Positions 53,899 through 64,000 of a stretch of 64,000 nt of DNA are shown here, one piece after another; position 1 is the stretch's first letter; the number at the start of each line of letters is the position of its first letter. This DNA comes from Chromobacterium violaceum ATCC 12472 (GTDB lineage Bacteria > Pseudomonadota > Gammaproteobacteria > Burkholderiales > Chromobacteriaceae): the NCBI RefSeq assembly GCF_000007705.1, contig NC_005085.1, positions 4,101,752 through 4,165,751 of the forward strand, in the 5' to 3' direction. The notes below the pieces were generated by a model. It saw only the letters and a program-made list of their open reading frames with translations. It was not told where the DNA came from and did no database searches. The position numbers and the translations under genes were made by a program.

Positions 53899-53980
53899 AC
53901 GTGTCACAACGTGTCAGCGAAACCACAAAAGCCCCGTCAACCGGGGCTTTCTTCATTTCATAACGTGTCACTACGTGTCA
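53899..53980. repeat. Two pairs of ACGTGTCA direct repeats around the yicC terminator
   Basis: ACGTGTCA at 53899-53906, 53909-53916, 53963-53970 and 53973-53980. Within each pair the start-to-start distance is exactly 10 bases, one helical turn. A fifth copy is at 56709-56716 just before the alpA-like gene. They look like arm-type integrase sites or directionality-factor sites. Confidence 0.75.
53928..53950 (+). terminator. Intrinsic terminator after yicC
   Basis: Stem AAAGCCCCG/CGGGGCTTT with loop TCAAC, then CTTC. It lies between the two ACGTGTCA pairs. Confidence 0.85.
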
Positions 53981-54000
53981 ACAAAGCGCATACTTACCGT

Positions 54001-54052
54001 GTACCCAAGGGTGTACCCTAGGCGTTTTTCGCAGGGGCGTTTGGGTACACCC
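54001..54052. repeat. GTGTACCC repeats upstream of the integrase
   Basis: GTGTACCC at 54001-54008 and 54013-54020, and the inverted copy GGGTACAC at 54045-54052. The outer arms GTGTACCCAA and TTGGGTACAC are perfect 10-base inverted repeats. They end about 80 bases before the integrase start and could be core-type binding sites or its operator. Confidence 0.7.
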
Positions 54053-54132: not shown

Positions 54133-55404
54133 ATGGGCAAGCTGACCGACATGCAGATCAAGGCCTGGATCAAGGCCGGGGAACGATTCGAGGGCCGCGG
54201 CGACGGTGATGGGCTCTGGCTGCGCTTCCGCGAGAATGACAAGGTGCCGGTCTGGCGCTACCGCTACAAGTTCGCCGGCAAGTCCCGCACCATGCAGATC
54301 GGCAGCTACGCAGAGTTGTCGCTTGCCAAAGCCAGAGAAGCCGTCAAATCCCTCTCCGCCCGCGTGGCGCTGGGCCATGATGTTGCCGCGGAGAAGCAGG
54401 AGAAAAAGTCCGCAGCCCTGGCCAAGATCGAGGAAGAGAAGAACGCCGTCACCATGTTGGCGCTGGCGAATGAGTACTACGAGCGGATGATCCTGGGCCG
54501 CTGGAAGCACCCGGACATCGTGCGGCGCCGGATCGACAAAGACATCGGCCCCATGCTGGGCAAGATGAAGGTAGAGGACATCAAGCCCCGCCACATCGAC
54601 GACATGCTGCAGACCATCGTCAAGCGCGGCGCGCCTACCATCGCCAACGACGTGCTGCGCTGGACCCGCCGCATGTTCGACTACGCCATCAAGCGCCACA
54701 TCATCGAGATCAACCCGGCCAGCGCCTTCGATCTGGGCGACGCCGGTGGCAAGGAAGAGGCCCGCGAGCGCGCGCTGAGCCGCGACGAGCTGGCCAAGCT
54801 GTTCCAGGCCATGAAGCTAGCCCGCGGCTTCAGCGTGGAAAACGACCTCGCCATCCGCCTGCTGCTGTTGCTCTGCGTCCGCAAGATGGAGCTGTGCGCC
54901 GCGCGCAAGGAAGAGTTCGACTTGCCGGCCGGCGTCTGGCACCTGCCAGGCGAGCGCAGCAAGACCGGCAAGCCTATCGACATCCCCTTGCCCGCCTTGG
55001 CGGTGGAATGGCTGCAGCAGCTGTTCGACCTGGCCGGCCCCAGCGCCTGGCTGCTGCCGGCCCGCAAGATGCAGCACCGCATGGTGCCGCACATCCACGA
55101 GGGCACCATCGGCACCGCACTGGGCAAGGTTAAGCCGCACATGCCGGACGTGGCGGCCTTCACCATCCACGACCTGCGCCGCACCGCGCGCACCCACCTG
55201 GCGGAATTGGGCGTCGACCCGGTGGTGGCCGAGCGCTGCCTGAATCACAAGATCAAGGGCGTGGAAGGCATCTACAACCGTCACGACTACTTCAACGAGC
55301 GCCGCGACGCCCTGAACAAGTGGGCCGGGCTGCTTGATGCCCTGGACAAGGGAGAGGCCTACAACGTGACGCCAATTACCAAGGGTCGGATCAAGACGGC
55401 CTGA
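54133..55404 (+). CDS. int: P4-type tyrosine integrase
   Basis: Site-specific recombinase that inserts and excises the element. It is 423 residues long. The N-terminal DUF4102-type domain (about 1-90) has GDGDGLWLRFREN and ARVALGHDVAAEKQ. A core-binding domain follows, then the catalytic domain with Arg250 (CVRKMEL), Lys in RSKTGKPIDIPL, His346/Arg349 (HDLRRTAR), His in CLNHKIKGVEG, and nucleophile Tyr381 (IYNRHDY). Upstream repeats are probably its own sites. It reads away from yicC into the element. Confidence 0.96.
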   Translation: MGKLTDMQIKAWIKAGERFEGRGDGDGLWLRFRENDKVPVWRYRYKFAGKSRTMQIGSYAELSLAKAREAVKSLSARVALGHDVAAEKQEKKSAALAKIEEEKNAVTMLALANEYYERMILGRWKHPDIVRRRIDKDIGPMLGKMKVEDIKPRHIDDMLQTIVKRGAPTIANDVLRWTRRMFDYAIKRHIIEINPASAFDLGDAGGKEEARERALSRDELAKLFQAMKLARGFSVENDLAIRLLLLLCVRKMELCAARKEEFDLPAGVWHLPGERSKTGKPIDIPLPALAVEWLQQLFDLAGPSAWLLPARKMQHRMVPHIHEGTIGTALGKVKPHMPDVAAFTIHDLRRTARTHLAELGVDPVVAERCLNHKIKGVEGIYNRHDYFNERRDALNKWAGLLDALDKGEAYNVTPITKGRIKTA

Positions 55405-55505: not shown

Positions 55506-56558
55506 ATGACTATTCACGAGTCAGTCCTTGCAACACTTAATAAATGGAACATAGACCTAAGTGATTTCGCAAATATAGAACCAGGCAAATGGAACGGGCA
55601 AGAATATTGCAAAACAACAAAATCAATCAAAGAAAGAATAAAAGCAGAGAAAATAAACAACATAGGCCTATATGCAATACTATTCTCAGCAGAGATATTT
55701 GAGAACACGGCAAAGATCACTAATAAGGATGATGAGCTCATAAGCCTAAAGCAATGGCTTGATCGTTCACTCTCATTCTCTCTGAAGCACTTTTTATTTC
55801 TTCCGGAAAATGCTGCCAATGTGGAAAAATGGCAACCCATTAATGGAAAACCATCAGATCTAGCTCTAGTATCAGAAGAAATAGCAGAGCAGTTTTCGCT
55901 TGATTTACATTGCTCCTCTGATGATGCTGCTCTAGGCATACCATTTTTCACCAAAAATGATAATAATGACTTTTTGCCTTTACTACCCAACTCAAAGCTT
56001 CATAAAGCAATAACATCACTACATTACCTTGGCAGTGACCTTACCCTTAATCACATTCCAAATTGGATCGAAAAGGCTTATTTTCGACCATATGACCGCA
56101 GCCTCTTTCTGGACATGATGGGAAACAATCCAGAAGATGAATCTCGGCTAGAGCTTTATTTCTCATGCCTAAAGCATAAGCATGGAGAAAAGGCTGGCAC
56201 ATTGACCTCGCCGGAGAGAATTACTAGTACGCTATCCGACGAGCTATCGGTAGCGCGTAGAGAATCGGAAAAATATCGCCAAGAAATAGAAGAGTTAAGG
56301 TCGGAAATCAACAATACAACTTGTACGCCCCTGCCACCACTTGTTCAAATAGCCATGGACATTTTCCGTATCCATTGGCACAGCCAGCTTACTCCTCAAG
56401 ATGATGTCCGGTCTCGAGCCAATCAAGAGGCGATAGTTAAAAACCTGAAGGAAAAGTACCCCGGCATGACGGACGCTATCGCGAAAGCCATCGACAAGGT
56501 AGCCTCCCCAATTGATAGAGACCCTAGAAATGCAAGCGGAAAGTACCGCTTGCGCTAA
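55506..56558 (+). CDS. Unknown AT-rich cargo protein next to the integrase
   Basis: A 350-residue protein that I do not recognise. Base composition is markedly AT-rich compared with everything around it, with many AAA, AAT and ATA codons, pointing to separate acquisition. No signal peptide or membrane helix. Residues about 245-268 (SVARRESEKYRQEIEELRSE) predict a short coiled coil, followed by a C-terminal helical segment (KNLKEKYPGMTDAIAKAIDK) that resembles small DNA-binding or oligomerisation tails of prophage cargo proteins. AGGGAG lies 7 bases before ATG 55506. Position between int and alpA is a common spot for defence or fitness genes, but nothing in the sequence proves a function. Confidence 0.8.
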   Translation: MTIHESVLATLNKWNIDLSDFANIEPGKWNGQEYCKTTKSIKERIKAEKINNIGLYAILFSAEIFENTAKITNKDDELISLKQWLDRSLSFSLKHFLFLPENAANVEKWQPINGKPSDLALVSEEIAEQFSLDLHCSSDDAALGIPFFTKNDNNDFLPLLPNSKLHKAITSLHYLGSDLTLNHIPNWIEKAYFRPYDRSLFLDMMGNNPEDESRLELYFSCLKHKHGEKAGTLTSPERITSTLSDELSVARRESEKYRQEIEELRSEINNTTCTPLPPLVQIAMDIFRIHWHSQLTPQDDVRSRANQEAIVKNLKEKYPGMTDAIAKAIDKVASPIDRDPRNASGKYRLR

Positions 56559-56730: not shown

Positions 56731-56961
56731 ATGCCACCCCATGTCATCACACTCCCTGAAACCGGCTACATTCGTCAGCCTCTACTGGTCGGTGAGGCCA
56801 AGTCCGGCAAGCCTGGCATCCTGCCATTCTCAGTCTCAACATTATGGCGCCGCGTCCGCGCCGGCACTTTTCCCGCCCCTATCAAGCTGTCCGATCGTGT
56901 TACCGCCTGGAAAGCTGAGGACATACGCGAGTGGCTGGACAGCCAGAACCGTGCGGCATGA
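56731..56961 (+). CDS. AlpA-family transcriptional regulator / excisionase-like protein
   Basis: A 76-residue MerR-like winged helix. Core FSVSTLWRRVRAGTFPAPIKL then VTAWKAEDIREWLDSQ is diagnostic of AlpA/Vis/Cox small regulators, which control integrase expression and excision in P4-like elements. The ATG is at 56731; one ACGTGTCA copy lies 15 bases before it, consistent with self-regulation if the protein binds that motif. An inverted near-copy (TGACACGC) lies just after the stop. Confidence 0.9.
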   Translation: MPPHVITLPETGYIRQPLLVGEAKSGKPGILPFSVSTLWRRVRAGTFPAPIKLSDRVTAWKAEDIREWLDSQNRAA

Positions 56962-58351: not shown

Positions 58352-61228
58352 ATGAGCAATACATCCGAGCAGATCCGCGCCGCGCTGGCCCACATCGATG
58401 CCCACGAGCGGGGAACCTGGGTGGCCATGGCGATGGCGATTAAGTTCGAGCTGGGCGAAGCCGGCTTCCCGATCTGGGACGACTGGAGCCAGACGGCGAA
58501 GAACTACCAGGCCAAGGCCGCGCACAGCGTCTGGAAGTCGATCAAGCCAGCCGGCCGCGTCACCATCTCCAGCCTGTTCGCGCTGGCCATCCAGCAGGGA
58601 TACCGGCCCGAGCAGCCCTACCAAGCCCCCAGCCCAGAAGAGCGGGCGCGGCTGGACGCCGAGCGCGCCGCGGCCCAGGCCGAAGCCGAAGCGCTGGCCG
58701 AGCAGCAACGCCAACAGGCCAGGACCAAGGCCGGCCGCTTGTGGGAGCGCGGCCACAGCGTCAGCGCCGAGCATGGATACCTGACCTGCAAGGGTATCGT
58801 GCCGGCCGGCGCCGCCCAGCTGCGCGACATGCTGCTGATCCCGCTGCGCGCCGGCGGCGAGCTGGTCAACCTGCAGATCATCAGCGCAGATGGCAGCAAG
58901 CGCTTCCTGACCGGCGGCCAGGTCAAGGGCGCATCGCTGGTGCTGGGCAAGCTGCGCGACGCCGCCCAGGTGCTGCTGTGCGAGGGCTGGGCCACCGGCT
59001 GCAGCCTGCACCAGGCGACAGGCCAGCCTGTCGTCGTCTCCTTCAACGCCCACAACCTGGTAACAGTTGCCGGGCGCCTGGCCGCCACCTTGCCGCCGGC
59101 GGTGGAAGTGATCGTCTGCGGCGACAGCGACGAAAGCCTGACCGGCCAGCAGGCCGCCGGCCGCGCTGCCCAGCTGCTCCAGCCGCGGGGACGCTCCGTG
59201 GTCCCGGTCTTCACCACTGAGCAGGTGGAGCAGCATCGCCAGCAGCATGGCGACAAACTGCCATCCGACTTCAACGACCTGCACCAGCTCGCCGGCCTGG
59301 AGGCTGTCACCGAGAGCGTTTTTCCGGGTGATTCAAAAATGGTGGGAACACTGGGAACAGTGGGAACAGAACCGCTGAAACCATTGCCAGATAAGGGTTC
59401 TAGCCGTTCCCAGTTTTCCGTTCCCACTTCCGAGTGTTCCCACTTTCTCCCCGAAAATACCCCGTCGGCGCCGGCTGACGGCTCCCCTTTCTTCGTAGTG
59501 GAGGGCATTCCCGGCCAGCGCGATGGCGTGTATTGGCTGCCGCCGGCGGAGGATGGCAAAGACCCGGCCACGCCGTGGTGGCTGTGCTCGCCGCTGCACG
59601 TCCTGGCCGAGACCCGCGACGCCAGCCAATCGAATTGGGGCCGGCTGCTGGAGTGGCGCGACAACGACGGCCACCCGCACCGCTGGGCCTGCCCGGTGGA
59701 GATGCTGGCCGCCAGCGACACCGCTGAGTTCCGCCGCGAGCTGGTGCGCGGCGGGCTGACCATGTCGACCAGCCAGAAGGCCCGGCAAAAGCTGGTGGAC
59801 TACGTGTTGAGCCACCGCCAGGCCGCCGCGACGCGCCTGCGCTGCGTCTCCCGCATTGGCTGGCACGACGTGCGCTATGTGCTGCCCGGGGAGGTCCACG
59901 GCGAGCAGGACGGCGAAGGCGTGATCTACCAGGGTGCCGACAGCGGCGACTTCGACCGCGCCGGCACGCTGCAGGAGTGGCAAACCCACATCGCCGCCGC
60001 CGCGGCCGGCAACAGCCGCATCGTGTTCGCCATCTCGGTGGCCTTCGCTGGCGTGCTGGCAGACATGGCCGGCGAGTCGGGCGGCGGCTTCCACTTCGTC
60101 GGCACCACCAGCAAGGGCAAGACATCCACCTTGCTGGATCCGGCCGCCAGCGTCTGGGGCAATCCCGACCAGTTCGCCAAGAAGTGGCGTACCACCCAGA
60201 ACGGGCTCGAGGGCCTATGCCTGGGCCGCAACGACAATCTGCTGATCCTGGACGAGCTGGCCCAGATCGCCCCGGCCGACGCCGGCGGCGCCGCCTACCT
60301 GATCGCCAACGGCCAGGCCAAGGCGCGCATGACCAAGGAGGGCGGCAACCGGCCGGCGCACACCTGGCGCGTGATGCTGCTGTCAGCCGGCGAGATCGAC
60401 CTGGCCCAGCACATGGCCGAAGCCGGCAAGAGCGCCAAAGGCGGCCAGATCGCCCGCTTACCCGCCATCCCCGCCGATGCCGGCGCCGGCATGGGCACCC
60501 TGGAGCAGTTACACCAGCACCCCAGCGGCCAGGCCTTCGCCGACGCCATGAAGGCCTACTCCCGCCAGTACTACGGCACCGCGGGCCCGGCCTTCCTCGC
60601 CGCGCTGACACCTCCGGAATGCATGGACGAGATCCGGCGCGACATCAAAGACGGCGTCACCGGCCTGATCGAGTATCTGGGCGTTCCGGCTGGCGCCGCG
60701 CAGGAGGTGGGCCGCGTGGCCGCGCGCTTTGCGCTGGTGGCTTTCGCCGGCGAACTGGCCACGCGCTACGGCGTCACCGGCTGGAAACCCGGCGAGGCGG
60801 TACAGGCGGCCCGGCGTTGCTTCCGCGAATGGCTGGCCGAGAACCATACCGGAATGGCCGCCGACGACCGCGCGCTGTTCGCCCAGGTCAGCGGTTTCAT
60901 GCAGACCCACAGCTCCACCCGCTTCCCACCGCACGACGCAGCTCCAGAAGTGCTGGCCCGCTACCTGAACCGCGCTGGCTTCACCTTCATCGACGAGCAA
61001 GGCACGCAGCAATTCTGGGTGTTGTCCGAGCCCTTCAAGAAGGAGCTGTGCCGCGGCTACACCCCGCTGATCGCCGCCCGCTCGCTGCTGCGCGCCGGCT
61101 GGCTGCTCGCCGGCGACACCGAAGGCAACACGCGGCGCCACACCCGCAAGAAGCGGATCAAGGCGCTGGATTCCGCAACCGTGAACGTCTACGTGCTGAC
61201 CAGCACAGTACTGGAGGGCGAAGAATGA
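58352..61228 (+). CDS. Primase-helicase with Toprim-like and DUF927 ATPase domains
   Basis: Replication protein of the element, 958 residues. An N-terminal PriCT-2-like helical domain (about 1-75; WDDWSQTAKNY) is followed by a charged linker, a Toprim-like region (about 150-310; VLLCEGWATGCSLHQA and VIVCGDSDES), a low-complexity linker at about 325-375, and a DUF927 superfamily-3-like ATPase (about 380-860). The Walker A is GTTSKGKTS at 584-592 and Walker B LLILDELAQI. Analogous to the P4 alpha protein, which primes, unwinds and binds the origin. The linker DNA carries iteron cluster A. Confidence 0.9.
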   Translation: MSNTSEQIRAALAHIDAHERGTWVAMAMAIKFELGEAGFPIWDDWSQTAKNYQAKAAHSVWKSIKPAGRVTISSLFALAIQQGYRPEQPYQAPSPEERARLDAERAAAQAEAEALAEQQRQQARTKAGRLWERGHSVSAEHGYLTCKGIVPAGAAQLRDMLLIPLRAGGELVNLQIISADGSKRFLTGGQVKGASLVLGKLRDAAQVLLCEGWATGCSLHQATGQPVVVSFNAHNLVTVAGRLAATLPPAVEVIVCGDSDESLTGQQAAGRAAQLLQPRGRSVVPVFTTEQVEQHRQQHGDKLPSDFNDLHQLAGLEAVTESVFPGDSKMVGTLGTVGTEPLKPLPDKGSSRSQFSVPTSECSHFLPENTPSAPADGSPFFVVEGIPGQRDGVYWLPPAEDGKDPATPWWLCSPLHVLAETRDASQSNWGRLLEWRDNDGHPHRWACPVEMLAASDTAEFRRELVRGGLTMSTSQKARQKLVDYVLSHRQAAATRLRCVSRIGWHDVRYVLPGEVHGEQDGEGVIYQGADSGDFDRAGTLQEWQTHIAAAAAGNSRIVFAISVAFAGVLADMAGESGGGFHFVGTTSKGKTSTLLDPAASVWGNPDQFAKKWRTTQNGLEGLCLGRNDNLLILDELAQIAPADAGGAAYLIANGQAKARMTKEGGNRPAHTWRVMLLSAGEIDLAQHMAEAGKSAKGGQIARLPAIPADAGAGMGTLEQLHQHPSGQAFADAMKAYSRQYYGTAGPAFLAALTPPECMDEIRRDIKDGVTGLIEYLGVPAGAAQEVGRVAARFALVAFAGELATRYGVTGWKPGEAVQAARRCFREWLAENHTGMAADDRALFAQVSGFMQTHSSTRFPPHDAAPEVLARYLNRAGFTFIDEQGTQQFWVLSEPFKKELCRGYTPLIAARSLLRAGWLLAGDTEGNTRRHTRKKRIKALDSATVNVYVLTSTVLEGEE
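59343..59442. repeat. Iteron cluster A inside the primase-helicase gene
   Basis: Three TGGGAACA copies at exact 9-base spacing (59343, 59352, 59361), then three inverted copies, (C/T)GTTCCCA, at 59405, 59419 and 59435. They encode only the non-conserved linker (VGTLGTVGT and related), so selection appears to be on DNA. Candidate origin or cis-replication region. Confidence 0.8.
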
Positions 61229-62046
61229 ACATGCCGCAATGGCTCAATGCCACCATCCACCAGTCAGGGAAAAGCAGCCCAGAAGAGGCCAAAAGTGGGA
61301 ACACGGGAACGTGGGAACAAAAAACGGGAACACCGGAAAGCCTTATCCAGCAAGGGATTCAGGAAGTTGTTCCCACTGTTCCCACTGTTCCCACCGAAAA
61401 ACAGTCACCCCAGAAAACGCTCTCAAGCCTCCCTCTGGAGGGGGGCGCTATCCCTTCGGCCGGCGATTTTGCCGCCGGCATCGTCACCGCGCTGGTGATG
61501 AAGCAGCCGATGCCGCCGGCCGCCCTGCCCGCCGATCTGCTGGAGCGGGTCAGCCTGATCTGCAACCTGGAACGCTGGCCGAGCGCCGGCCGTGTCGAGT
61601 GGCTGGGGATGCTGCGCGCGCAAATCGAGCGCGACGGTGTGCCGGTGGCTGAGCTGGTGGCCGCCCTCGATGCCCACCTGAACCGCCACCATGCCGGCGC
61701 GACGGCTGACGATGACCGGGAAGCCATCGAGGAGCGAGCCGCGATCATGGAGCACGACGGCGGCTTGTCGCGCGCCGAAGCTGAGCACCGCGCCAAGCAG
61801 GCGAACGATTGCATGAACTGCCGGCACTGGAAGGGAGAAGCCACCGTGCCGGATGCACGCCAGCGCGCGGCGCAGATGGTGGGCCTGCAGACGCCGCACC
61901 GCGGCAACGCCACCCAAGGGATGTGCGGCGCCCGTTACCGGCCCTGGCGCATCTCCAACATGGCCAGCGAGGCCGATTACACCCGGTGGCACTTCATCGG
62001 GCAATGCGCCTTCCAGCCGGCGCACATTCAGGAGCACGCCGCATGA
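61225..62046 (+). CDS. Unknown protein following the primase-helicase
   Basis: A 273-residue protein, not recognised. ATG 61225 overlaps the helicase stop. The first 70 residues are low complexity because they are encoded by iteron cluster B (VPTVPTVPTEK). A helical middle follows, with acidic region GATADDDREAIEERAAIMEHDGG. The C-terminal part has four spaced Cys residues (NDCMNCRHWKG ... GMCGARY ... IGQCAFQ), suggesting a metal site. Such proteins often accompany DUF927 helicases in prophages; their role is unknown to me. Confidence 0.8.
   Translation: MNMPQWLNATIHQSGKSSPEEAKSGNTGTWEQKTGTPESLIQQGIQEVVPTVPTVPTEKQSPQKTLSSLPLEGGAIPSAGDFAAGIVTALVMKQPMPPAALPADLLERVSLICNLERWPSAGRVEWLGMLRAQIERDGVPVAELVAALDAHLNRHHAGATADDDREAIEERAAIMEHDGGLSRAEAEHRAKQANDCMNCRHWKGEATVPDARQRAAQMVGLQTPHRGNATQGMCGARYRPWRISNMASEADYTRWHFIGQCAFQPAHIQEHAA
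61296..61393. repeat. Iteron cluster B, mirror image of cluster A
   Basis: Forward copies, (T/C)GGGAAC(A/G), at 61296, 61304, 61312 and 61325, then three TGTTCCCA copies at exact 9-base spacing (61368, 61377, 61386). The arrangement is the reverse complement of cluster A, 1.9 kb away. Confidence 0.8.
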
Positions 62047-62746: not shown

Positions 62747-64000
62747 ATGGCGTTTGAATCCTATTCGGTAGCGGTAAAAATCAGCCTTCTGAACGAGATC
62801 AGTTCAGGCTTGCGGCTGCTGTCGTCCGATCTGGCACGCTCGCAAAAGGGCGTTGACCAGCTGCAGGGGAAGCTCGACAAACTGCGTGACTTCGCCAAGT
62901 CGGGCGCGCTGGCAATTGGCGCGGGCGCCGGCATCACGCTGATGTTCAAGCAGCCGCTGGAGGATGCACGCAAGCTGCAGACGGAGATCGCGCGCTTCTC
63001 CACATTGGGCTTTGGCGATAACGTCAACCGGCAGGCGCAGCAATTCGCACTGGGCATGAAGACCTTCGGCACCAGCCTGACCGACAACATGACGCTGTTG
63101 TCTGACGCCATGGCGGTCTTCAAAGACTTGCACCATGCCGAGTTTGCCGCGCCGATCATGGCCAGGATGAAGTTTGCCAACGAAACGTTGTATGGCAAGG
63201 CCGGCGGCGAAGCCAATGAACGCAAGTTCATGGATCTGCTGAAGGTGATTGAGCTGCGCGGCGGCACGCTGAGCGAAAAGGTTTTTGCGGAACAGGCCGA
63301 CTTTGCGCAGAAAGTCATTACCGGCAGCCGCAACCGGGTGGACGCTTCCCAGATGCTGCAGGCGCTGAAAACCGGCGGCCTGGCGCTCACCCGTCGCAGC
63401 AATGAGGCCTTCTACCTGGGCGCCGAGCCACTGATCCAGGAGTTTGGCGGATCGCGCTATGGCACCGGCACCATGTCGCTGTATCAAAACCTGGTGCAGA
63501 TGCGAGGCACCATCACGTCACAGCAAGAGATGTTCCGCCTGGGCCTGCTCAATCCCGCCATGGTCCAGTTCAATAAGCTGGGCAAGCTCAAGAAGGCCAA
63601 GGCCGGCGCGTTCATCGGCTCCAACATTCTGGAGGAACGGGGCGAACTCGCTTTCCTCAAAGAAGTCTTGCTACCGGCCTTCAAGCGGCACGGCATCACA
63701 GGCGATGAGGCCATCATCCGCGAGCTGGGCATGATCCTGAGCAACCGCACCGGTTCCGCGCTGCTGGGCCGGATCTACCAGCAGATGCCGACACTGGAAC
63801 GTCAGATTCAGGCCAACAAGTCCGCCATGGGAATTGGCCAGAGCGAGAAGGCCGCGCGCGGCACGGTGGACGGCCAGATGCTGGAACTGCACAAGCAGTG
63901 GAACACCTTGATGACCCAACTGGGCGTTTCCATCCTGCCATCCGCCATCAGCGTGCTGAAGGAGCTGAACAGCTTCCTCAGCGTGACCAACGAGCTGATG
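62747..64000 (+). CDS. Phage tail tape-measure-like protein, partial
   Basis: The first 418 codons of a longer protein, open to the window edge. The N-terminus MAFESYSVAVKISLLNEISSG, helical repeats with ARSQKGVDQLQGKLDKLRDF, and the Gly/Ala membrane-like stretch SGALAIGAGAGITLMF fit tape-measure proteins, which span the tail tube and often carry such helices. It could instead be an injected or minor tail protein. No major tail, capsid or terminase gene lies between it and the replication genes. Confidence 0.7.
   Translation, partial: MAFESYSVAVKISLLNEISSGLRLLSSDLARSQKGVDQLQGKLDKLRDFAKSGALAIGAGAGITLMFKQPLEDARKLQTEIARFSTLGFGDNVNRQAQQFALGMKTFGTSLTDNMTLLSDAMAVFKDLHHAEFAAPIMARMKFANETLYGKAGGEANERKFMDLLKVIELRGGTLSEKVFAEQADFAQKVITGSRNRVDASQMLQALKTGGLALTRRSNEAFYLGAEPLIQEFGGSRYGTGTMSLYQNLVQMRGTITSQQEMFRLGLLNPAMVQFNKLGKLKKAKAGAFIGSNILEERGELAFLKEVLLPAFKRHGITGDEAIIRELGMILSNRTGSALLGRIYQQMPTLERQIQANKSAMGIGQSEKAARGTVDGQMLELHKQWNTLMTQLGVSILPSAISVLKELNSFLSVTNELM

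What the first reader, a model, noticed from the sequence alone, without database searches (positions are those of the whole stretch)
59343..61393. Mirror-image iteron clusters in and after the primase-helicase gene
Core TGGGAACA occurs six times in cluster A and seven in cluster B, including one exact 9-base tandem triplet in each. B is arranged as the reverse complement of A. Both fall in low-complexity linkers of two different proteins, so the protein sequence appears shaped by the DNA. P4 likewise has paired ori and crr regions bound by its alpha protein. I infer an origin plus partner site that could loop together.
Basis: partly seen in the sequence, partly recalled or inferred. Interest (0 to 1): 0.8.

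Follow-up and report, generated by a model that had tools for sequence, protein, structure and literature searches.

The report
Split replication origin flanking its helicase
A mobile element in a Chromobacterium-like bacterium seems to carry its DNA replication start site in two mirror-image halves about two thousand bases apart, one hidden inside the gene for the replication enzyme thought to read it, and relatives show that enzyme and DNA sites changing together.

Summary
The repeats are real (counts slightly off: the 8-mer TGGGAACA occurs 4+5 times, its core GGGAAC 6+7). They are very probably the two mirror-image halves of one iteron origin, read by the C-terminal winged helix of the DUF927 primase-helicase. 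All 14 split loci checked keep the mirror order, while the iteron sequence varies by clade. In two separate branches every recognisable iteron is GGGTAC instead of GGGAAC, and the same three C-terminal residues differ (930 N, K933Q, T943K). The linker peptide follows the DNA, read in different frames in orthologues. Of 78 DUF927 loci, 48 have an iteron cluster just after the gene; control stretch 1 of 78. Fifteen of 78 have 10 or more copies there, like the known adjacent PICI layout; L138 has the window's half-geometry with the halves 33 bp apart. P4 and EcCICFT073, with another helicase family, share the half-origin spacing. I call it a new variant of a known kind: a split PICI-type origin with one half embedded in coding sequence, plus a natural specificity-switch experiment.

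The parts
59342..59442 (+). half-origin A: tandem triple of 9-bp iterons (59342-59368), spacer, three inverted iterons (59405-59412, 59419-59426, 59435-59442)
   Evidence: conserved in split relatives
59326..59342 (+). outer flank of A, GGGTGAYT plus A-tract, shared with the outer flank of B
59378..59399 (.). spacer dyad of A (AAnCC-N12-GGnTT)
   Evidence: A/B spacer identity 65% in the window against 34% for random stretches
61296..61394 (-). half-origin B, mirror image of A: spaced iterons (starting 61296, 61304, 61312, 61325), spacer, tandem triple (61368-61394)
61338..61359 (.). spacer dyad of B (AAnCC-N12-GGnTT)
61395..61411 (-). outer flank of B (reverse complement GGGTGACT plus T-tract)
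58352..61228 (+). primase-helicase gene, 958 aa: PriCT_2, Toprim_3, linker that holds A, DUF927 helicase, C-terminal winged helix
60842..61225 (+). C-terminal winged-helix domain (aa 831-958), proposed iteron reader
61139..61180 (+). residues 930, 933 and 943 that differ together with the iteron; 933 and 943 on the wing strands, 930 just before them
61225..62046 (+). downstream ORF (273 aa, no Pfam family) whose N-terminal part overlies B
54133..55404 (+). integrase of the element
56731..56961 (+). AlpA-like regulator
53997..54018 (.). candidate left attachment repeat (21 of 22 bases match a copy about 13 kb to the right, L174:2990-3011)
   Evidence: compared by eye, not tested further

Best explanation
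A and B are the two halves of one replication origin of an integrated satellite-like element of about 13 kb. The helicase reads each 9-bp iteron with the wing of its C-terminal winged helix. Each half is a tandem of three iterons, a spacer with a short dyad, then further iterons, the first of them inverted and on a fixed helical phase; the halves face each other as mirror images. In many relatives both halves sit side by side after the gene, as in known PICI origins; here the left half lies about 2 kb upstream, at the primase-helicase junction, so it is translated as the linker. Inferred steps: helicase assembles on both halves, probably as two opposed hexamers, the halves are bridged by looping, the flanking A/T tracts melt, and the fused primase primes both strands. 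Shown here by comparison: conservation, mirror order, geometry, covariation, predicted fold. Not shown: binding, replication, looping, melting site.
For: Clusters conserved with changed sequence: in L033/L056 11 of 11 and in L058 12 of 12 recognisable iterons are GGGTAC, none GGGAAC. Window against L033 and L004 against L058: 16 columns differ in both pairs, 7 to the same residue: 323, three that the iteron DNA encodes (340, 353, 363), and 930, 933, 943 at the wing. Position 933 in the alignment: K in the 9 GGGAAC-type rows, Q in the 3 GGGTAC rows, A in L064 (GCGAAC); by eye R in L101 (GGGAAC). Mantel-type test, 64 loci: iteron against wing given ATPase r 0.13, 0 of 500 permutations; iteron against ATPase given wing -0.03. 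Downstream cluster in 48 of 78 loci, control 1 of 78. Cluster of the same motif upstream in 17 of 50 loci, while at most 2 of 29 foreign motifs do as well. Mirror order in 14 of 14 loci; core in frame 2 in the window clade, frame 0 in L005, L157, L006, L062-L064. L138: both halves 33 bp apart with the window's spacings. Fold: SaPIBov1 Rep and TcpK; TcpK reads 9-nt tandem repeats by its wing (PMC6137059, abstract and passages). PMC7581432 (passages): SaPI Rep recognises iterons directly downstream through its C-terminal domain. PMC6092414 (passages): PICI origins are two iteron sets 3' of rep; an EcCICFT073 rep-ori segment maintains a plasmid. That origin has the same mirrored spacing.
Against: No binding or replication data. 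30 of 78 loci show no significant downstream cluster, so the rule is not universal at this sensitivity. The relative L161 has decayed repeats, and L034/L060 have a frameshifted helicase with intact iterons. The broad covariation is weak (r 0.13). The paired GGGTAC difference could reflect gene conversion from an unsampled donor rather than two independent changes. EcCICFT073 and P4 use another helicase family.
Confidence: 0.83

Rival explanations
1. B alone is the origin; A is a control or incompatibility site of the same protein (handcuffing, autoregulation, copy control) and not half of the origin.
For: B holds the known PICI ori position directly 3' of rep. At least eleven loci (L014, L018, L020, L024, L027, L028, L036, L041, L042, L045, L047) have five to seven copies downstream and no second cluster of three or more in the stretch held. 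Iteron plasmids use handcuffing (recalled).
Against: A and the reverse complement of B share outer flank, spacer and phase beyond the iterons in the close clade, and together they equal the adjacent double cluster of L138.
Confidence: 0.25
2. The sites are read by another element protein (AlpA-like, HTH or the downstream ORF) for partition, packaging or regulation.
For: The element encodes two small HTH proteins. VapE-type elements carry the same triplet.
Against: The iteron covaries with the helicase wing and not with its ATPase domain; the downstream ORF is not detected by tblastn in 5 of the 17 relatives searched: L005, L157, L064, L026, L040.
Confidence: 0.07
3. A nucleic-acid hairpin (transcript attenuator or cruciform) formed by the inverted repeats.
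For: Opposed repeats lie within each cluster of the window clade, and the A/T difference keeps them complementary.
Against: In half A of L005, L006 and L064 direct copies replace most or some of the distal inverted ones, yet the gap to the first inverted copy is kept. Spacer folds are mostly weak and the dyad's middle base is often mismatched.
Confidence: 0.04
4. Protein-level low-complexity linkers that share codons by chance or by repeat slippage; no DNA function.
For: VGT and VPT tripeptide repeats lie in flexible-looking parts.
Against: Different frames in orthologues, concerted silent differences (GGA/GGT, GTT/GTA), mirror copies on the other strand.
Confidence: 0.02

Closest known systems
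Gram-negative PICI rep-ori (EcCICFT073) and SaPI rep-ori
   Same: int, AlpA and fused or paired pri-rep; iterons directly 3' of rep; two iteron sets; mirrored half geometry [tandem]46[inverted]22[tandem] in EcCICFT073
   Different: There both sets lie side by side after the gene and the EcCICFT073 helicase is D5-family; here one set is about 2 kb upstream inside the coding sequence and the helicase is DUF927
Satellite phage P4 alpha protein with ori and crr
   Same: Two separate iteron sites, crr just behind the helicase gene; 8-bp repeats at 9-11 bp pitch, 43-bp gap to the inverted repeat (record annotation)
   Different: Alpha is D5_N/Pox_D5, not DUF927; the annotated ori lies about 2.1 kb beyond the gene start, not inside the helicase gene
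SCCmec Cch and SaPIBov1 Rep helicases
   Same: DUF927 core and C-terminal winged helix
   Different: Shorter chains (580-603 aa) without the N-terminal primase part; distant in sequence (E 8e-12 and 3e-8)
TcpK of pCW3
   Same: Winged helix of similar fold; binds 9-nt tandem repeats with its wing
   Different: Stand-alone relaxosome protein, no helicase; fold likeness only
Phage lambda ori in gene O, and SPP1 oriL/oriR (recalled, from no call)
   Same: Initiator sites inside the initiator's own gene; SPP1 has two sites
   Different: Unrelated initiators
PLE RepA-ori modules of Vibrio cholerae (PMC8263062, abstract and passages)
   Same: Initiator and origin swap together repeatedly; an origin-cutting phage nuclease appears to select for change
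   Different: Unrelated RepA; about 30-bp iterons; swaps of whole modules

Membership tests
DUF927 (Cch/SaPIBov1 Rep-like) self-loading helicase | DUF927 domain match | tested here: met
   PF06048 E 1.9e-77, aa 391-668
DUF927 (Cch/SaPIBov1 Rep-like) self-loading helicase | Fold of the helicase core and C-terminal winged helix | tested here: met
DUF927 (Cch/SaPIBov1 Rep-like) self-loading helicase | C-terminal domain binds downstream iterons; helicase activity | not testable with these tools
   needs experiments; only comparative support
PICI rep-ori | Iterons immediately 3' of rep | tested here: met
   B, about 68-166 bp after the stop
PICI rep-ori | Two iteron sets side by side around an AT-rich region | tested here: not met
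   Second set lies about 2 kb upstream inside the gene
PICI (whole element) | int, AlpA, pri-rep gene order | tested here: met
PICI (whole element) | Phage-dependent induction, packaging, interference | not testable with these tools
   needs experiments
P4 alpha/ori/crr | D5-type (D5_N, Pox_D5) helicase | tested here: not met
   no D5 family; P4 alpha has D5_N and Pox_D5
P4 alpha/ori/crr | Two separated sites with repeats of one type and the same gap | tested here: met
   annotated P4 repeats
P4 alpha/ori/crr | Both sites required in cis and bridged by the protein (recalled) | not testable with these tools
   needs experiments
TcpK-like winged helix | Fold | tested here: inconclusive

The most novel reading that the evidence does not exclude
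Satellite origins are built from an interchangeable mirrored half-module whose spacing is kept across unrelated helicases (D5 and DUF927) while the 9-bp iteron is rewritten by a few wing residues. The two halves can drift apart by kilobases and still act as one origin by looping. Where they end up on both sides of the helicase, one half becomes the linker of the primase-helicase fusion, so initiator and origin cannot be separated by recombination.
Probability: 0.35. Interest if true: 0.8.

Novelty: new variant of a known kind. Interest (0 to 1): 0.62.

Why it matters
It extends what is known of SaPI Rep to a large and mostly unstudied helicase family, with a named candidate reading surface, and natural pairs (the window or L004 against L033 or L058) allow a clean test of how an initiator changes specificity together with a dozen sites. 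It also suggests that the two halves of a satellite origin can separate and hide in coding sequence, where searches of intergenic DNA would miss them. A selective reason for switching is known in another satellite, where a phage nuclease imitates the initiator (PMC8263062, passages).

Tried and rejected
Hairpin idea: spacers folded as DNA; most z-scores weak, dyad middle base often unpaired, direct distal copies in some clades. Exceptions: L101 left (z -5.5), L138 right (-3.7), L033 B (-3.4), L095 (-3.0). Priming-hairpin idea (like RSF1010 ssi sites, recalled): not supported by the same data as a whole. Invertible-segment idea: A and B are inverted repeats around about 2 kb, but all 14 split loci have the same orientation. 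Viral contigs and genome-contig scans with the single protein found 0 and 2 loci. A profile of the C-terminal domain found no relevant PDB sequence, so the fold match rests on structure alone. P4's own origin-binding domain was not among the rows shown; this is inconclusive. The AAnCC...GGnTT dyad was not found in the EcCICFT073 origin or in P4's crr and ori. No 16-bp attachment repeat was found; an 11-bp one was, extended by eye to 22 bp. PADLOC gave nothing for six element proteins. Literature: ten searches listed no report of a split DUF927 origin; only open-licence papers are held.

Limits of the statistics: rows are not dereplicated (L033/L056 identical in helicase, L034/L060 alike). One search used 78 of 123 loci with enough downstream DNA, thinned to 64; 9 of the 78 and 6 of the 64 had been found through the repeat itself. 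The gap values were picked by hand (19 clade values; left out among others L046 and L096, whose next repeat is in the same orientation, L062 and a copy in L087/L093 at 62, L098, L044); its null was maximised over 13 periods and the data over 60, so its 0 of 5000 is optimistic; best period 11.1, R 0.83; R 0.79 at 10.5. The layout labels of the tree were set by hand; 43 of 118 rows had one and were used, 75 were dropped; L056, L060, L153 and L160 were left out as copies and L159 by oversight.
Full report
Observation. All nine exact TGGGAACA of the 64-kb window lie in the two clusters, and 13 of its 20 GGGAAC do; the triplet occurs nowhere else in the genome. A is in the Toprim-DUF927 linker of a 958-aa PriCT_2/Toprim/DUF927 protein; B begins about 68 bp after its stop, inside the start of the next ORF. 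The window lies in a one-contig genome; a same-genus genome holds L056, whose helicase is identical to that of Chromobacterium sinusclupearum L033, so the host is probably a Chromobacterium. Integrase, AlpA, primase-helicase and a tape-measure gene suggest an integrated satellite-like element of about 13 kb with a candidate 22-bp end repeat.

Conservation with change. In relatives about 50-88% identical the clusters keep their place: in members of the close clade with an intact gene the A triple starts 1880-1886 bp before the end of the gene and the B triple 138-140 bp after it. L033/L056 and L058 carry GGGTAC in 11 of 11 and 12 of 12 recognisable copies and no GGGAAC in either cluster. L058 is 95.8% identical to L004, and L033 is 88.1% identical to the window. 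The ATPase tree puts the window with L033 (SH-aLRT 100) and L058 with L004 and L035 (85), so the change occurred or was acquired at least twice. Between the two pairs 16 protein columns differ in both and 7 take the same residue: V323I, three residues that the iteron DNA itself encodes (340, 353, 363), and 930 to N, 933 K to Q, 943 T to K. In the predicted winged helix 933 and 943 lie on the two strands of the wing and 930 two residues before the first (model residues 103, 113, 100; strands 102-106 and 112-120). DNA of L058 stays close to L004 (81-100% per full 100-column block) and is nowhere nearer to L033, so L033 was not the donor; an unsampled donor is possible. The direction of change is by parsimony only.

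DNA before protein. A is read as VGTVGTVGT in most of the window clade (VGTLGTVGT in the window), GNKGNTGN in L005, GNNGNNGN in L006, ANHANHAN in L064, VTAVTAVT in L040: the same kind of repeat in different frames of orthologous linkers (frame 2 in the window clade, L026 and L040; frame 0 for the triples of L005, L157, L006, L062-L064). The A/T difference is silent in the triples (GGA/GGT, GTT/GTA). A and the reverse complement of B also share the outer flank GGGTGACT with an A/T tract and 53-71% of the spacer, against about 34% for random stretches, in the six closest loci; the spacer likeness is lost in L005 (35%) and weaker in L157, L006 and L064 (44, 47, 53%).

General rule in DUF927 helicases. 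A de novo 6-mer test found a cluster within 330 bp after the stop in 48 of 78 loci (at most 1 of 100 shuffles as good) and in 1 of 78 control stretches of coding sequence. Thirty loci did not pass. Fifteen of the 78 have 10 or more copies there. Of 50 loci with a motif (at most 2 of 100 shuffles), 17 have a second cluster of the same motif (3 or more copies) upstream, 16 of them at -1.7 to -1.9 kb; motifs from other loci do as well in at most 2 of 29 cases each. All 14 split loci given, and L034, L056, L060 and L007, have the A tandem on + and the B tandem on -. L037 has its second module 1.3 kb downstream and L146 about 5 kb upstream. On the ATPase tree split and adjacent layouts, labelled by hand, need 4 changes: L026/L040 (split, with an unrelated iteron) group with adjacent L019 (98), and L037 with L030 (100). 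A search for the bare triplet GTGGGNACA x3 in viral contigs gave 19 loci: 11 with a DUF927 match by tblastn (4 of them at only 25-28% identity), 3 with a VapE-like helicase, and 5 with no helicase in the ORFs scanned (none was scanned in L106).

Grammar. L138 has + 9 + 8 + 43 - 14 - 16 - 33 - 14 + 16 + 14 + 42 - 9 - 9 -. Its left half equals the window's A (+ 9 + 9 + 44 - 14 - 16 -) and its right half B of L059 and L034 (- 14 + 16 + 13 + 43 - 9 - 9 -) within one base. Thus the window's pair looks like one such origin pulled apart. Gaps from tandem to first inverted copy fall near 31, 42 and 53 bp, as helical phasing would give (hand-picked values). P4's annotated repeats show a 43-bp gap and 9-11 bp pitch; the EcCICFT073 origin shows [--]46[+]22[---]31[++]22[-]46[++], and a rep-ori segment of that island was shown to maintain a plasmid (PMC6092414, passages; I matched the island by its capsid and decoration genes). 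Both use D5-family helicases, so the grammar is shared across helicase families. A loose dyad AAnCC-N11-13-GGnTT sits in many DUF927 spacers (49 hits, including 11 one-base-shifted doubles, in 35 of 124 loci within 400 bp after the gene; 12 in the -1950 to -1700 stretch; 69 in the remaining 731 kb) but not in P4 or EcCICFT073; its reader is unknown.

Mechanism proposed. Supported by comparison: two mirrored half-origins, one translated as a linker; covariation with the wing; phase. Inferred: helicase binds each half, two opposed hexamers form, the halves are bridged by looping, an A/T tract melts, and the fused primase starts both strands. Alternative kept open: B is the origin and A a control site. 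Selection for switching could come from incompatibility between sibling elements (inference) or from origin-directed nucleases as in PLE (PMC8263062, abstract and passages).

Verdict. A split variant of the PICI-type origin, functionally like P4's ori and crr, in a DUF927 element. New variant of a known kind; interest 0.62.

Noticed in passing
62747-64000 and L174:1-906: A tail tape-measure-like gene (phrog_28) lies in the element; no other structural gene was recognised among the ORFs scanned, the following small ORFs have no Pfam family, and then chromosomal-type genes begin.
   Followed up: partly
53899-53980 and 56709: Four ACGTGTCA copies before the integrase and one before alpA, none elsewhere in the window: candidate integrase arm sites.
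   Followed up: no
55506-56558: Low-GC ORF (350 aa) between integrase and alpA with no Pfam, PHROG or PADLOC match: possible cargo gene.
   Followed up: partly
L092:3874-3992 and L106:6550-6668: Two 7.1-kb contigs, probably one circular element, with mixed GGGTAC and GGGAAC triples and no family found in the two L092 proteins scanned.
   Followed up: no
L089, L099, L105: VapE-like helicases beside the same 9-bp triplet, suggesting that the reading domain or the motif is shared between helicase families.
   Followed up: no
L100:8512-11381: GGGTACA triplet next to a phage-type RNA polymerase split over two ORFs.
   Followed up: no
L034:5959-8872 and L060: Helicase frame broken while both iteron clusters remain intact.
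   Followed up: no
L161: Relative of L007 whose iterons in both places look decayed.
   Followed up: partly
L021:555-751: Twenty 10-bp GCCACCC tandem copies upstream of a Toprim-type match.
   Followed up: no
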